Positions 7,954-19,703 of a stretch of 31,466 nt of DNA are shown here, one piece after another. Position numbers and translations under genes: made by a program. Below the pieces are notes generated by a model. The model saw only the letters and a program-made list of their open reading frames with translations. It was not told where the DNA came from and did no database searches. Within the stretch, counting starts at the first letter, position 1. Each line of letters opens with the position of its first letter. This stretch comes from Spirogloea muscicola. Lineage: Eukaryota; Streptophyta; Zygnematophyceae; Spirogloeales; Spirogloeaceae. The DNA is taken from assembly GCA_009602725.1 (NCBI GenBank), contig WELB01000238.1:90094-121559 (forward strand). Direction: 5' to 3'.

Positions 7954-10900
7954 CTAACTTCCATTGGCCTTGGGGCCAACACCCTGGCTCTCTGCTTCAT
8001 CCTTCCCGATAGCCACAGCCACCTTCTTCAAGATAGCTTCGGTTGACAGATGCGAGCTCTCAATAGCCTTCGAGACCTTGCACCACCTCTCTCCATGTCG
8101 AGGTTCCGCTGCCTTGCACCTCACCACTACATCTTCCTGCTGATTTTCGTCTCCATACTGGCGCACATAAGCGCAGCAAATACAAAGGTCAACATCGTAG
8201 TGATGTACACTCTCTGCATCAACCGGATTGCATCCATCTCCTAACAAGGGCCAGACGAAGATGAGTGGAATCAGAATCATACAACATGGGAAAAAAGAAA
8301 CCCGCTTACCTGAAGCTCAAAACGATAGGCCTGCGCCCAGAAGTCACCTATGTCTGGAGCAAGCGTAATAGCCCGATTGAACCAATTTCTGGCCTTGTCC
8401 ACCTTGTGGTCACGCCAGAACAGCACCGCAACTGCGCATATGACGTAAGGATCATGGTCGCATCGCTTCAATGCATCCACACTCTTCGACTTCCGTTGAG
8501 GTCGAGGAGCCAGCTCAATAGCTTCAGCCCACAATCGTCCGCTTGTTGGACAGTCCTGCATGAGGAAACATGCCGCTAAGAGTGAGCGTGCATCACATTG
8601 CAGCTAGCCACAAGCATCTACAATCATCCCAGCAATCATATTCTCCTGGGAAGCATGTCAAGAACATTGCCCGTTAAGAGAGGGTTAACATGTTCAGAAA
8701 TGTCATGGCACAGTCCCAATTCCTCCAGTCACAAAGGCACATGATGCACACTGCCACGAGTTCAGGTCTGCACCATAGGCCTCGATACAAGTAGGCAACA
8801 TCTTCGTCTTGTGATACTCATAAGCCCAATTAGGGTGCAAAGGAGCCCATAACATATGGACGACAAACGAAGATCCTATTGGGACTGACTGGACTTCATG
8901 GAGGCAAACAGGTACTTGGCCAGCAGGGCTGTCACGTACCTGAAGAGCTTTGGCCATGAGCGCATCAGCCGCTTTCCTGTTGCCAGCATGGACCTCCACC
9001 CGGACTGCGGCCAACCACAGCTCAGGATTCTGCGGATTCTTATGCCTCGCTTGCTCCAAGACAGCCCTGGCCTTGCTCACACTGCTTGCCCTCTCTTCCA
9101 GCTGCCCCCAGCCACATGAGAAGGTCACATTCAGCTCATGCAAGCGGCATCATCGCCCGTGGTCCACCAATTGCAAGATAAGGTGTGACCAGCACATCAC
9201 ACTTGCAGGCAGGCATGCGGAGGAGTGCCTCCATGATGTTGTCGGGCATCAAGATGGGGCGGACTACACGAAAGTTCAGCCAACTAACCTGAGCATAGCA
9301 CAACCAAAGAGGAGTGCTCGATGGGCAGCGCTTGAGGCCTCGAAGGTACACATCTCTGGCCTCTACGATCCTTCCCTCCCGGGCCTCCAGTTGGCCAAGC
9401 ATGAGCCAGAGTTTGTGCATGTCAGGAAACTTAGCAATACTCTCCTCCAATAGCGACCTCTCCTCTGCCACATTCCCAACCTGAACAGAAGCCGTGCTTG
9501 CTTGTGAGACAGATGTCCACTGCTCTTTGCCGACCAGAGGATGAGAGCAAGTAAGGGAGTGGATAGTCCTACACATCTTCCGGATCTCATGATGAGAGGG
9601 TGTCCAGATACAATGTGAGCTCTATGTATAACCTGCCAATGCACGACCACAAAGGCCGCACTTGCAGCATGATACATCCTCTGCAAAGTCAGCTGTGGCT
9701 GTTACCTCCCGCTCAAGGATGGCAGACTTCATCCACACGCGTTCTGTGCCCTCCCTTTCCCTGGCCTTAGCTAGGAGTATTCGAGCCCTCTCCGGCTCAT
9801 TGTTCTCAAACTCCAGCTTGAAGGCAGCAAGCCAGATCTCTTCTGAGTTTGGAATGTGGTATGAAGCTTCCTGAAGGATTGCCCTGGCGGATGGCACATC
9901 ACCTGCAAGCCACTTCTCTTTAGCCCCCATGAGCCACAGCACCTCCGCCAGAGGGCAGTAGGTGACAGCTTTTCTGAGAAGAGTATCCAGGCTGTCAGTG
10001 GTGCCGTGTGCCTTCTCCAGCTGAGCTGCCTTGAGCCAGATGGACTTCTTCCCAGGGAACACACTCAGAGCATGCGCATAGATGGCCCTTGCCGTCTCGA
10101 TGGAGCCTCTCTTCTTCACCTCATCTGCATCAGCCATCCACGTACGCTTCCTACCACATCACCCCGCAACAGCACAGCCCTATCAGTCGCAGCCAAAATT
10201 CGAATGAAACCCGCGCTTGTCATGGCTTAGCATCAGCTATTCGCAACCTATCTGTGCAAGGACATGCCTCTTTCATCCCCACGCTTCAGAGAAGCAAGTC
10301 AGCGCAGAGGCTGCCTCACGCCCATGCTGGTGATTGCACAACACCCACATTGGTGATCCTGCAAGGAATTGCACATGGTCCAGCTTCTCTTACCTGTCCT
10401 CCTCCTCAATACCGATGCCCACACACGAGTTAACAATGGCTTGGCAGGTGACCACAGAGCCAGCTCTCTCAGCCGCTTCAGCATCCTTTAACCAAGCTTC
10501 ACGGTCAATCACAACTCCCATGTCCAGGAGCTCCTTCACAGCCCTACTGATGATTTTCCCCACATTTGGCTGCACATGTATGCAAATCAGTATCAGGGCA
10601 TGCCTGCAGAATATAACATGGGACACAGCATCAGTGGTGACAGATCACGAGACAGGAGCATGCTGCATGCCAGAAGAGTGCAGCTCCAGATGATGCTCAG
10701 TGAAATTACCCCATTGTTGTTAGCTTCCTCAAGCTTGGCGGCCGTGATCCATATAGCTGGCTCAGTGGGCAACGCTTTGCGGGCCTTGTTAAGGACTCGT
10801 TTTGAGTTTTCATAGCTCTCAAGCCTCGCTAGAGCCAGCCACAGCTCAGTGTGAAGAGGACAGCACTCCACGGCCCTGGAAAGGAGGACACGGGCATCAT

Positions 10901-12561
10901 CCTCGTTGGCAAGCTCCACCACAGCTTTCCACAGCCTGACCGAGTCTGGAATGTGCTCCAAAGCCTTCCTCAGCACCCTGGACTTTGCATTATCGTCTTT
11001 TTCCAGCCTCGCAGCCTGCAGAGGCATGACCCCCTCAGTCAGAGTGAACAACACAGCATCGCAGCACCCTAGGACAGTCTCTCTTGCTTTGATGGACAAT
11101 TCAGTGCCACTGGCCAAATTTGACAAGGCCAGTGGTGCCTCCGTTCTTCATGCCTATCCATGGAGATAACCCAAAGCTCACCTGCATCCAGAGCTTGACA
11201 GAGTTGGGAATTGCCTTCACTCCTTGTGACAGGACCTGCCGGGCGCTCTCAGGGTTGGCCAACCGGCATGCCTCTATCCAGACATCCTCGTTCTTAGGAC
11301 ATTCTTGACATCCCTTCTGGATGAAGTTCCTCGCAGCCTGAAGCTTGCCAGCCACCTCCTCCAGCCTTGCAGCAGCTATCCACCCTGGAGCATGCTTGGG
11401 GTTCGTCTGTATGACGGACTTAAGCAGCAGTCTAGCCTTCTTGATGTCTGATATCTCAGCATCGCTCGTGATCTACAGAGGCGAGCACGAGAGGCGATAA
11501 TGTCAGGTTGGAAGTGAAGGAGACTGACAATGTGCTGACGTAGGCTGTGCAGCTATGCGAGCCCACATGCCGTATCCTGACGCATGCCTGATGACTTGCC
11601 AGGTCGAATCAGGGCGTGAGCTTACTCAACTTAGTGGTTGGCTGTAGAAGTTGGCTCTGACAAAGCATGGGCGTCGGCACAGGCACAGGACACAGCTCAC
11701 CTTCATGCTCTTGAGATCTGTCAGGTAGCCTTTTGGGTCGACCACCGTCTGGCCCGTCACCGAGTCCGACAGCCGATCGAGCTTCAAGCTGAGCACAGTG
11801 CCTCGGCCCTCACCAACGGCAGTCAGGTCAGTGACGGGAGTCTGGCTCATGGGCGTCTCCAGGCCGTTGGTGGTGCCGAGCGCCCCTGCTCGGCGAGGGT
11901 CCAGAGCAGTGACATGCACCTGCTCTTGCCGGGCCTTCTCGAGCAGCGTGTCCGGGACAGGCACAAAGCTCTCAAAGCGCTTGCGCTTGTTGCGCAGGCT
12001 GTAGTCGCCAATCTCGGGGATGGCATCCCACTGCTCGCTGGGCATGGCGGCCATGCTCCGCTTGACGTCCGCAAACTGCTCCGTGATCTTGGGATTGGAG
12101 GCGCGGTACTTCTCAATCTCCTCCTTGAGACGCGCCTCGCGCCGCTCGCGGCGACGCGAGTCCATGCGCTGGTCGATGCTGTCCCACACCTCGTCCGCCT
12201 CGCGGTCGTCCTCGTCGTACTCGCCGCTGGCAAAGAGCCCGACATCGTTGCCTTCGAACTCGTCAAACTTCTGGTTCTCGTCGTACTTCTTCACCTCCTT
12301 GTCCTCCTCCTCCGCACCACCAGCGTCGTCGTCATCGTCCTTGCCTCGACCGCGACCCGCGGCGCCGCCGGGACCGGGGGGAAGGGCTGCAGCGGCGGCG
12401 CCCGGGGCGCCGCGCTCGGGGAGGTCGGGTGCGGCGCGTGCCGGGCCGATATCAGAGCGGGTGGTGAACCCGGTGGCACCACGGCCGAGGCCAGCGACGT
12501 AGTTGGGAGGCGGGCGAGTGTTCAGGTCCAGACGCTCCTTGCGCACCACGGGCGCCTGCAT
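7954..12561 (-). CDS. PRP6: Pre-mRNA-processing factor 6 (PRP6/STA1), U4/U6.U5 tri-snRNP component
   Basis: Bridges U5 and U4/U6 snRNPs in the spliceosome. Nine exons on the minus strand: 12561-11701, 11472-11182, 11015-10710, 10569-10394, 10150-9706, 9480-9289, 9101-8940, 8555-8310, 8157-7954. All have GT-AG borders and compatible phases, giving 960 residues (human PRP6 941). The PRP1 N-terminal domain starts the protein, with [19 protein letters not shown] at residues 18-36 and later the Arg/Glu-rich [15 protein letters not shown]. From about residue 288 there are tandem HAT repeats, e.g. [52 protein letters not shown] and [15 protein letters not shown]. The C-terminus has [14 protein letters not shown] and [12 protein letters not shown]. 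The ATG at 12561 is 17 codons before the conserved start of the domain. The N-terminal ubiquitin-like domain of land-plant STA1 is not seen in exon 1. Confidence 0.97.
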
Positions 12562-12785: not shown

Positions 12786-13076
12786 AAAGAAGAAAGAAGA
12801 AAGTGCTCGCCCATTGAGAATAGGGGCTGGAACAACCAGCCCGAAAGAGAGAAGGCGCGCGGGGCGCATGAATTGAAAGGGAGGCCAATTCAAGCCAATA
12901 CATTGTTCAGGCAGAGTCGAGTGCAGACTAAACAATGCTACATAATACGGAGACCTAATCTAAGGTACCTAAGATGACATTAGTACCCACGGGTGAGCAC
13001 AAACAAATCTGACAAGCTAACTTGGGGAGCTGGAGCGCCGCCACGAAAGCCGGAGGCCTGACTTAGAGCGCGCCCT
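12786..13076 (-). mobile_element. 5'-truncated LINE fragment: REL C-terminus, 3'UTR, stem-loop, tail
   Basis: Read on the minus strand, codons from about 13075 give RALSQASGFRGG... and end SDLFVLTRGY-stop (stop 12982-12980). This matches the C-termini near 15378, 16496, 18623 and 19014. A 140-nt 3'UTR follows, then the stem-loop GGGCTGG/loop/CCAGCCC (12842-12824), CTCAATGGGCGAGCAC and a TTTC/TTC-type tail running to about 12780. The C-terminal reading is short but is repeated in many copies, which makes chance unlikely. Confidence 0.75.
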
Positions 13077-13211: not shown

Positions 13212-13930
13212 TGGCTTTTCCGGCCCCTATCGACCCCTTTTGCGCGACGCCGGCTACCGAGCGGTCGTGGAAGTCAACAATATCATGCCTATCACCACGG
13301 ACGCCCAGGGACGTCATCATCGCCGCACACCTGACATTGTGGGCGTGCAACCTGGTGGAGGACCACGGGCCCTGGTCGACGTTGTTGTTACGGAGTCATA
13401 TAAGGGCCCAGCATCGACACACATCGCTGGGCATGCAGTGGGCGGTGCAGAACAAAGGAAACTACTCCGATTACCCCCAATGCGATCAGCTCCTGCCAGC
13501 GGCAATCGACATCTATGGCTGTCTGGGTCCTCGTTTCCACACTCTGCTTCAACACATTGCCAATCTAGGCTACACTCGACGTGCAGATGTGTTTCCAGCT
13601 GAGATGGGCTTGCCAGCTGCATATCTGTCGCTCTTGCGACGGCGAGTTTCGGCCTGTTTGCATCGTGCTCAGGCTAGTGCCTTGCACCAGAAAGCTGGGC
13701 GAGCTCTGATTGGTGGCAGAAGGGCTCCGTTTCTGGCATCTAGTATTCATGCATCGATAGTGACCTTTATGTTTTGACCCGTGGTTATTGAGCGAGTCAA
13801 TCTGCTGTAGGTTATGTAGTTCTTTAGATGTGCTTGCCATTGTACTTGGCCATTTGGCCTACATTTGTTTCTTATACACGAAATTTTTCTTTTTCTCAAT
13901 GGGCGAGCCCTTCCTTCCTTTAGGCACCTT
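13208..13930 (+). mobile_element. LINE fragment with frameshifted REL domain and 3'UTR
   Basis: Begins at a stem-loop (13208-13226). From about 13222 it encodes RDAGYRAVVEVNNIMPI, then RRTPDIVGVQPGGGPRALV and DVVVTES. After a frameshift near 13395 it continues YPQCDQLLPAAIDIYGCLG and LSLLRRRVSACLHRAQ to a stop at 13777. The PD...(D/E)...VVVTE...F.P.A.D..G.LG pattern is the REL domain found at the C-terminus of a group of algal non-LTR RT proteins. The 3'UTR carries CTCAATGGGCGAGC with a CTTCC tail (13894-13925). The 3' half is duplicated in reverse at 19313-19703. Confidence 0.75.
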
Positions 13931-18469: not shown

Positions 18470-18690
18470 GTGTGGGAAAGCGCGGCCAGATTGACTGGTG
18501 GCTGGGAAGAGAAGCGCGGCCAGATTGACTGGTGGCTGGGAAAGGCCAGCCCAAAGGAATGGACAATGTCTGATGGAGCCGGAGTGCGAAGGACTAGGAC
18601 TAAGACATCAGCCAGGGAACGCTCAGTAACCTCTAGTCAGGAGATGCAAGTCTGAGTAGCTAGCCGTCGGAAAGACGTGGGAAGGGATGC
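18470..18690 (-). mobile_element. LINE C-terminus and 3' end with duplicated tail
   Basis: Minus strand: ASYSDLHLLTRGY-stop (18625-18623), 3'UTR, stem-loop (18551-18534). After it a CCAGCCACCAGTCAATCTGG unit is repeated twice. It is near-identical in reverse to 16440-16620, indicating a recent common source. Confidence 0.75.
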
Positions 18691-19200: not shown

Positions 19201-19292
19201 AGGAAGAAGAAAGTGCTCGCCCATTGAGAATAGAAGAAGAAGGAGGTGCTCGCCCATTGAGAAGAGGGGCTGGAAAAGCCAGCCCAAAAGAA
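19201..19292 (-). mobile_element. LINE 3'-end copy with duplicated tail module
   Basis: Minus strand: stem-loop GGGCTGG/CTTTT/CCAGCCC (19285-19267), then CTCAATGGGCGAGCAC with a CTCCTTC tail, then TATTCTCAATGGGCGAGCAC again with a TTTCTTC tail. The tail module is present twice. Confidence 0.7.
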
Positions 19293-19312: not shown

Positions 19313-19703
19313 GGAAAGAAGACCGTGTATTAGAAAGAGATGTAGGCCAAATGGCATAACCTACAGCAGATTGACCCGCTCAATAACCACGGGTCAAAAC
19401 ATAAAGGTCACCACTCGATGCATGAATACTAGATGCCAGGAACGGAGCCCTTCTGCCACCTACTAGAGCTCATTCTTTTTCGGGCTGGTTGTTCCAGCCC
19501 CTATTCTCAATGGGCGAGCACTTTCTTCTACTAGAGCTCGCCCAGCTTTCTGGTGTAAGGCCTGAGCACGCTGCAAACAGGCCGAAACTCGTCGTCGCAA
19601 GAGCGACAGATATGCAGCTGGCAAGCCCATCTCAGCCGGAAACACATCTGCACGTCGAGTGTAGCCTAGATTGGCAATGTTTTGAAGCAGAGGGTGGAAG
19701 CGA
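19313..19703 (-). mobile_element. LINE fragment homologous to 13.5-13.9 kb, with a nested insertion
   Basis: The reverse complement follows 13520-13880: C-terminal coding AEMGLPAAYLSLLRRRVSA and the same 3'UTR past the stop. It is interrupted at 19472-19527 by a 56-bp insertion with a 12-bp target-site duplication. Comparison with 13.7 kb shows the uninterrupted ancestral site. Confidence 0.85.
19460..19539 (+). mobile_element. 56-bp ultrashort LINE insertion with 12-bp target-site duplications
   Basis: Direct repeats CTACTAGAGCTC at 19460-19471 and 19528-19539 flank a 56-bp insert (19472-19527). The insert has ATTCTTTTT, the stem-loop GGGCTGG/TTGTT/CCAGCCC (19482-19500), CTATTCTCAATGGGCGAGCA and CTTTCTT. 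The homologous site at about 13700 lacks it and has one target copy. It equals the 3' terminus of the LINE copies at 12.8, 18.9 and 19.2 kb. Confidence 0.85.

What the first reader, a model, noticed from the sequence alone, without database searches (positions are those of the whole stretch)
19460..19539. A 56-bp retrotransposition product: only stem-loop and tail, with 12-bp target duplications
CTACTAGAGCTC flanks a 56-bp insert that interrupts a LINE fragment whose uninterrupted counterpart is at 13.7 kb. The insert is exactly the family's 3' terminus: a 7-bp stem-loop plus CTCAATGGGCGAGCA and a TTTCTT end. The shared terminus, target duplication and empty site together imply target-primed integration of an extremely 5'-truncated (or independently transcribed) RNA. 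It would be among the shortest autonomously recognisable LINE-derived insertions, or a minimal SINE-like parasite of the LINE.
Basis: seen in the sequence. Interest (0 to 1): 0.8.

Follow-up and report, generated by a model that had tools for sequence, protein, structure and literature searches.

The report
Short stub of a copied LINE
A 56-base piece of DNA is the tail end of a jumping gene that began copying itself into a new spot and stopped almost at once; the genome holds many such stubs of many lengths, so it is real but ordinary rather than a new miniature parasite.

Summary
Window 19472-19527 is a 56-bp insert flanked by a perfect 12-bp repeat; it interrupts a LINE fragment whose uninterrupted (paralogous) relative lies inverted at 13.5-13.8 kb. 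The insert is identical to the 3' end of an abundant, young ~4.1-kb LINE ending in a hairpin plus CTCAATGGGCGAGCACTTTCTT. Target-primed reverse transcription with extreme 5' truncation explains it. A separate minimal element is not supported: of 100 listed copies of the terminal 22-mer, 66 are truncated below 179 bp, at scattered lengths of 24-173 bp that fit a smooth decay (KS p=0.93), 2 of them at 53-59 bp. Seventeen of 100 lack the full hairpin; one such 34-bp copy (L113) has its own 14-bp duplication. Repeats of 9 bp or more flank 18 of 92 truncated copies against 0.8% of mismatched flank pairs; 74 of 92 show none that long. LINE insertions under 50 bp are already described in Anolis (PMC5389967, passage). 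The reverse transcriptase is R2-like; the endonuclease type is unproven.

The parts
19472..19527 (+). 56-bp insert: 3'-terminal fragment of the LINE family, 5'-truncated
19460..19471 (+). target-site duplication, left copy CTACTAGAGCTC
19528..19539 (+). target-site duplication, right copy CTACTAGAGCTC
19482..19500 (+). 7-bp hairpin GGGCTGG-TTGTT-CCAGCCC near the LINE 3' end
   Evidence: RNA fold (-15.2 kcal/mol for the whole 56-nt insert, which includes a second small hairpin)
19506..19527 (+). 22-nt terminus CTCAATGGGCGAGCACTTTCTT, 1906 exact copies in the genome
19340..19712 (-). host: fragment of another LINE copy, interrupted by the insert
13522..13816 (+). uninterrupted relative of the host fragment (paralogous empty site), inverted with respect to the host copy
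12797..12846 (-). second very short copy (about 50 bp) of the same 3' end, with a repeated TTTCTTC tail
   Evidence: limits read by eye, duplication not clear
19207..19232 (-). 26-nt terminus directly after the tail of another copy (tandem 3' ends)
   Evidence: read by eye

Best explanation
The 56-bp insert is a dead-on-arrival LINE copy. The protein of a ~4.1-kb LINE bound the 3' end of its RNA, nicked the target beside CTACTAGAGCTC, primed reverse transcription at the RNA's TTTCTT(CT) end, and stopped after 56 nt; staggered second-strand cleavage and joining left a 12-bp duplication. Shown here: exact terminus, 12-bp duplication, paralogous empty site, near-identical long copies with the same 3' end, and a smooth distribution of truncation lengths in two samples. 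Inferred: the enzymatic steps, the role of the hairpin in RNA recognition, and whether the stop was polymerase drop-off or host end-joining.
For: Exact insert, duplication and empty site. Long copies L163 and L164 end in the same 3' UTR and terminus; L163, L164 and L165 are 99.85-99.95% identical over about 4.1 kb. In the 22-mer sample 66 of 100 copies are truncated below 179 bp (24-173 bp), consistent with a truncated exponential (KS p=0.93; in the 28-mer sample 65 of 100, 34-173 bp, p=0.60), and the fullest 3-, 5-, 7- or 9-nt window is not in excess (simulated p 0.146 or higher). Fitted stop rate about 0.0072 per nt, median about 118 bp. Exact repeats of 9 bp or more: 18 of 92 truncated copies against 67 of 8372 mismatched flank pairs; among copies of 66 bp or less 5 of 37 against 8 of 1332. 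An earlier, looser test gave 18 of 65 against 2.5%. Clear short examples: L113 34 bp with a 14-bp duplication, L121 55 bp with 18 bp, L064 62 bp with 12 bp.
Against: 74 of 92 truncated copies show no repeat of 9 bp or more; among the 18 shortest (41 bp or less) one does, so for the very shortest the case rests mainly on the shared terminus and the continuity of lengths. Some called junctions are doubtful: L047(-), L115 and L128, all called at 74 bp, share 84-92% of their upstream 25 nt with another copy, and at least five of the 17 copies below 46 bp (L133, L141, L149, L161, L162; by eye) directly follow another LINE 3' end and may be template jumps. A constant stop rate over 4 kb would leave almost no complete copies, yet 17 of the 150 rows lie in open frames of 1237 aa or more (two of these frames, 1668 and 5873 aa, are suspiciously long), so stops must become rarer after the first few hundred bases. 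The samples are the first 100 listed places in contig order with an exact terminus, not a random draw.
Confidence: 0.93

Rival explanations
1. A separate minimal SINE-like element: a short RNA made of hairpin and tail, transcribed on its own and inserted by the LINE protein in trans.
For: The insert holds the complete hairpin and tail, and another copy of almost the same length (L121, 55 bp, 18-bp duplication) exists. The 28-mer sample has 7 of 65 truncated copies at 53-59 bp, which is not a significant excess.
Against: No size class at 53-59 bp: 2 of 66 in the 22-mer sample and no window in excess in either sample. 17 of 100 copies start downstream of the hairpin's first base, among them L113 with a 14-bp duplication. 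All 56 bases are LINE 3' end, with no foreign 5' part.
Confidence: 0.03
2. The RNA was a fragment: a degraded or internally initiated LINE transcript that was copied to its end, so that the 5' end of the insert reflects RNA breakage, not an early stop of reverse transcription.
For: A population of randomly broken RNAs would also give smooth lengths.
Against: Not distinguishable by DNA alone; early termination is the usual account of 5' truncation (PMC5389967, passage), and loss of NHEJ factors gives longer ZfL2-2 inserts in DT40 cells (PMC2666801, passages).
Confidence: 0.03
3. The 12-bp repeat arose by chance, by local duplication or by an assembly error.
For: None found.
Against: The insert is identical to dispersed copies, the junction is gapless once one repeat copy is removed, and repeats of 12 bp or more occur in 15 of 8372 mismatched flank pairs.
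Confidence: 0.01

Closest known systems
Severely 5'-truncated LINE insertions, e.g. CR1 in Anolis carolinensis (PMC5389967; start of abstract and passages seen)
   Same: 3' end retained, truncated in 5', and many insertions under 50 bp inferred by the authors
   Different: Here the reverse transcriptase is R2-like by sequence; the host is an unnamed eukaryotic-looking genome
R2-type LINEs (PMC5678591; start of abstract and passages seen)
   Same: Single long open frame; reverse transcriptase matched in the PDB (E up to 0.01) by R2 proteins only; no APE endonuclease among Pfam hits
   Different: Copies dispersed with variable duplications, not seen at one fixed site; knuckle spacing differs from the published CX2-3CX7-8HX4C; endonuclease domain not confirmed
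R2 SIDEs (PMC3414825; start of abstract and passages seen)
   Same: Short derivatives inserted through an R2-type 3' end
   Different: SIDEs join a 5' ribozyme to an R2 or R1 3' end; this insert has no 5' part
Stringent LINEs with a 3' stem-loop (PMC4176376; abstract and section list seen)
   Same: 3' hairpin and short pyrimidine tail
   Different: Hairpin recognition untested here; the paper's LINEs are of the zebrafish L2 type

Membership tests
LINE (non-LTR retrotransposon) | Reverse transcriptase in the long element | tested here: met
   RVT_1 E=8.4e-16 in the L163 open frame
LINE (non-LTR retrotransposon) | Shared 3' end with variable 5' truncation | tested here: met
   65 of 100 and 66 of 100 copies truncated at scattered points
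LINE (non-LTR retrotransposon) | Variable target-site duplications | tested here: met
   18 of 92 with 9 bp or more against 0.8% in mismatched pairs, 74 of 92 without; 12 bp in the window
R2-type (RLE) LINE | R2-like reverse transcriptase and no APE endonuclease | tested here: met
   At E up to 0.01 three PDB sequences match, all R2 (9nl3 7.2e-7, 9dou, 9nl2); no APE family among Pfam hits up to E 0.1
R2-type (RLE) LINE | C-terminal restriction-like endonuclease | tested here: inconclusive
   The C-terminal 366 aa gave one PDB hit, a topoisomerase at E=1.3; the fold of a window fragment was poor (pLDDT 52.5); suggestive motifs are recalled only
R2-type (RLE) LINE | Zinc knuckle CX2-3CX7-8HX4C | tested here: not met
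   L163 open frame reads CX1CX12HX3C at the likely place, by eye; published spacing from PMC5678591
R2-type (RLE) LINE | N-terminal C2H2 zinc fingers | tested here: inconclusive
   Two finger-like motifs by eye; Pfam zf-C2H2_4 E=0.097, below its cut-off
SINE | Discrete element with a head derived from a small RNA gene | tested here: not met
   Insert is LINE 3' end throughout; no size class
SIDE | LINE 5' end joined to LINE 3' end | tested here: not met
   All 56 bases match the contiguous LINE 3' end
Stringent LINE | Protein requires the 3' stem-loop | not testable with these tools
   Hairpin present; the requirement needs an assay

The most novel reading that the evidence does not exclude
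A minority of the 50-60-bp copies, including this one, could stem from a short stable RNA that carries only hairpin and tail and is inserted in trans, hidden under the smooth background of ordinary truncations.
Probability: 0.03. Interest if true: 0.7.

Novelty: new member of a known kind. Interest (0 to 1): 0.25.

Why it matters
It is a clean case of a LINE insertion that stopped within 56 nt. The family around it shows that insertions down to 34 bp occur with a clear duplication, and possibly down to about 24 bp, and that the inserted copy need not keep an intact hairpin. The family is of modest interest: its reverse transcriptase is R2-like, yet copies are dispersed and about half of the sampled ones (48 of 100) are 100 bp or shorter, whereas 41% of R4 insertions in Anolis are complete (PMC5389967). 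Stubs of this size are easily missed by repeat annotation and can look like small unexplained indels.

Tried and rejected
A discrete minimal element: not supported by the length distributions. A possible cluster of 5' ends near 160-166 bp was looked at because several such copies have duplications; the fullest windows in the scan lay elsewhere and were not in excess. Ten other copies share the CTACT that follows the tail in the window; this reflects the query, which contained those bases, together with the frequent CT after the tail (55 of 75 copies that end in TTTCTT), not a shared target. A Pfam search of seven window open frames, several of them LINE fragments, gave no reverse transcriptase hit, so long copies were sought in the genome. 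Endonuclease class: sequence search and structure prediction of a window fragment gave nothing usable. Literature searches; 'restriction-like endonuclease' with 'green alga', 'retrotransposon' and 'LINE' returned no paper. That search rested on an untested guess that the host is an alga; the organism was not identified. PMC8226300 and PMC3636483 were seen in passages and are not relied on.

Full report
The observation. The window reads CTACTAGAGCTC at 19460-19471, then 56 bp, then CTACTAGAGCTC at 19528-19539. The interrupted sequence is a LINE fragment with an inverted relative at about 13522-13816. Aligning the two with the insert and one repeat copy removed gives a gapless junction; the relative differs there by three bases. 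A 114-nt query of joined flanks gave 41 matches from 40 scored of 1467 candidates; 40 of them span the junction at 93-94% and one covers only 48 nt. The empty sites are paralogues, not alleles. The finding is confirmed.

The insert as part of a family. A 62-nt query (insert plus 6 flanking bases) returned 41 matches from 40 scored of 224 candidates, 40 of them (the window included) 100% identical over 60-62 nt. The inner 28-mer occurs 1588 times and the terminal 22-mer 1906 times in 153 Mb, with 0 for the reversed controls. Long copies were found through the C-terminal peptide; the three that were fetched (L163, L164, L165) are 99.85-99.95% identical over about 4.1 kb. L163 and L164 end, after the stop codon, in a 3' UTR of about 120 bp that finishes with the hairpin and CTCAATGGGCGAGCACTTTCTT; L165 breaks off within that terminus. 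The open frame of L163 holds a reverse transcriptase (RVT_1 E=8.4e-16); at E up to 0.01 its PDB matches are three sequences, all R2 retrotransposon proteins (best 7.2e-7). No APE endonuclease was found by Pfam. A restriction-like endonuclease is likely by position and recalled motifs, but neither sequence search nor fold prediction showed it.

Are the short copies a separate element? Two overlapping samples were examined. The first 100 listed places of the 28-mer were fetched with flanks. For the 22-mer, the first 100 listed places comprise 65 already in the first sample and 35 fetched anew. In the first sample 65 of 100 copies are called truncated, at 34-173 bp; in the second 66 of 100, at 24-173 bp, with 25 of 100 at 60 bp or less and 48 at 100 bp or less. 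The lower limits are set by the probes. Both distributions fit a truncated exponential (KS p=0.60 and 0.93) and the fullest windows are not in excess; 53-59 bp holds 7 of 65 and 2 of 66. The fitted stop rate is about 0.0072 per nt. In the second sample 17 of 100 copies begin downstream of the hairpin's first base; at least five of these directly follow another LINE 3' end (by eye) and may be template jumps. L113, a 34-bp copy that starts at the right arm of the hairpin, has a 14-bp duplication CTTTGGAAGAGCTG, scored 15 by the script because one further base is shared with the element. An intact hairpin in the inserted DNA is thus not needed, and the 56-bp length has no special status. Three called junctions at 74 bp (L047(-), L115, L128) share their upstream 25 nt with another copy at 84-92% and may be a family difference rather than a junction; they were kept in the counts.

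Target duplications. For 92 truncated copies (one segmental duplicate, L158, dropped), exact repeats of 9 bp or more at the junctions occur in 18, against 67 of 8372 mismatched flank pairs; for copies of 66 bp or less in 5 of 37 against 8 of 1332. A looser earlier test gave 18 of 65 against 2.5%. The window copy has 12 bp. Against this, 74 of 92 show none that long, and of the 18 copies of 41 bp or less one does. Duplication, blunt joining and target truncation are all known outcomes of LINE insertion (PMC2666801, passages) and may account for the rest; misplaced junctions in nested repeats are another cause.

Mechanism. The best account is target-primed reverse transcription that stopped early. 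Of the 75 copies in the first sample that end in TTTCTT, 55 continue with CT, which fits pairing between the target primer and the RNA end, or a target preference. The stop rate cannot be constant over the whole element, because long open frames of the family are not rare (17 of 150 rows at 1237 aa or more, two of them suspiciously long); early stops followed by more stable synthesis would fit. Whether the early stop comes from the enzyme, from host end-joining or from broken RNA is open.

Comparison with what is known. For CR1 in Anolis a large number of insertions under 50 bp has been inferred (PMC5389967, passage). SIDEs of R2 (PMC3414825, passages) and SINEs differ because they carry a 5' part. 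The finding is a new member of a known kind.

Noticed in passing
window 12797-12846 (-): A second very short copy of the same 3' end, with a repeated TTTCTTC tail. L125 holds another short copy at the same kind of host site (GCGCGCCTTCTC).
   Followed up: partly
window 19207-19232 (-); L162; L049; L133: 3' termini placed directly after the tail of another copy, as if tails were targets or the reverse transcriptase jumped templates.
   Followed up: partly
L165 3' end: A long copy whose 3' terminus breaks off at CTATTCTC, without AATGGGCGAGCACTTTCTT.
   Followed up: no
genome-wide: 150 scored reverse-transcriptase matches of 985 candidates, many in long open frames; the genome seems rich in retroelements beyond this family.
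   Followed up: no
window 9136-9621 (-), probably 8703-11472 (-): TPR/HAT-type repeats with a match to the PRP39 N-terminal HAT profile over its cut-off (one piece tested).
   Followed up: no
window 18478-18542: Perfect 31-bp direct repeat at 34-bp spacing inside a repeated element.
   Followed up: no
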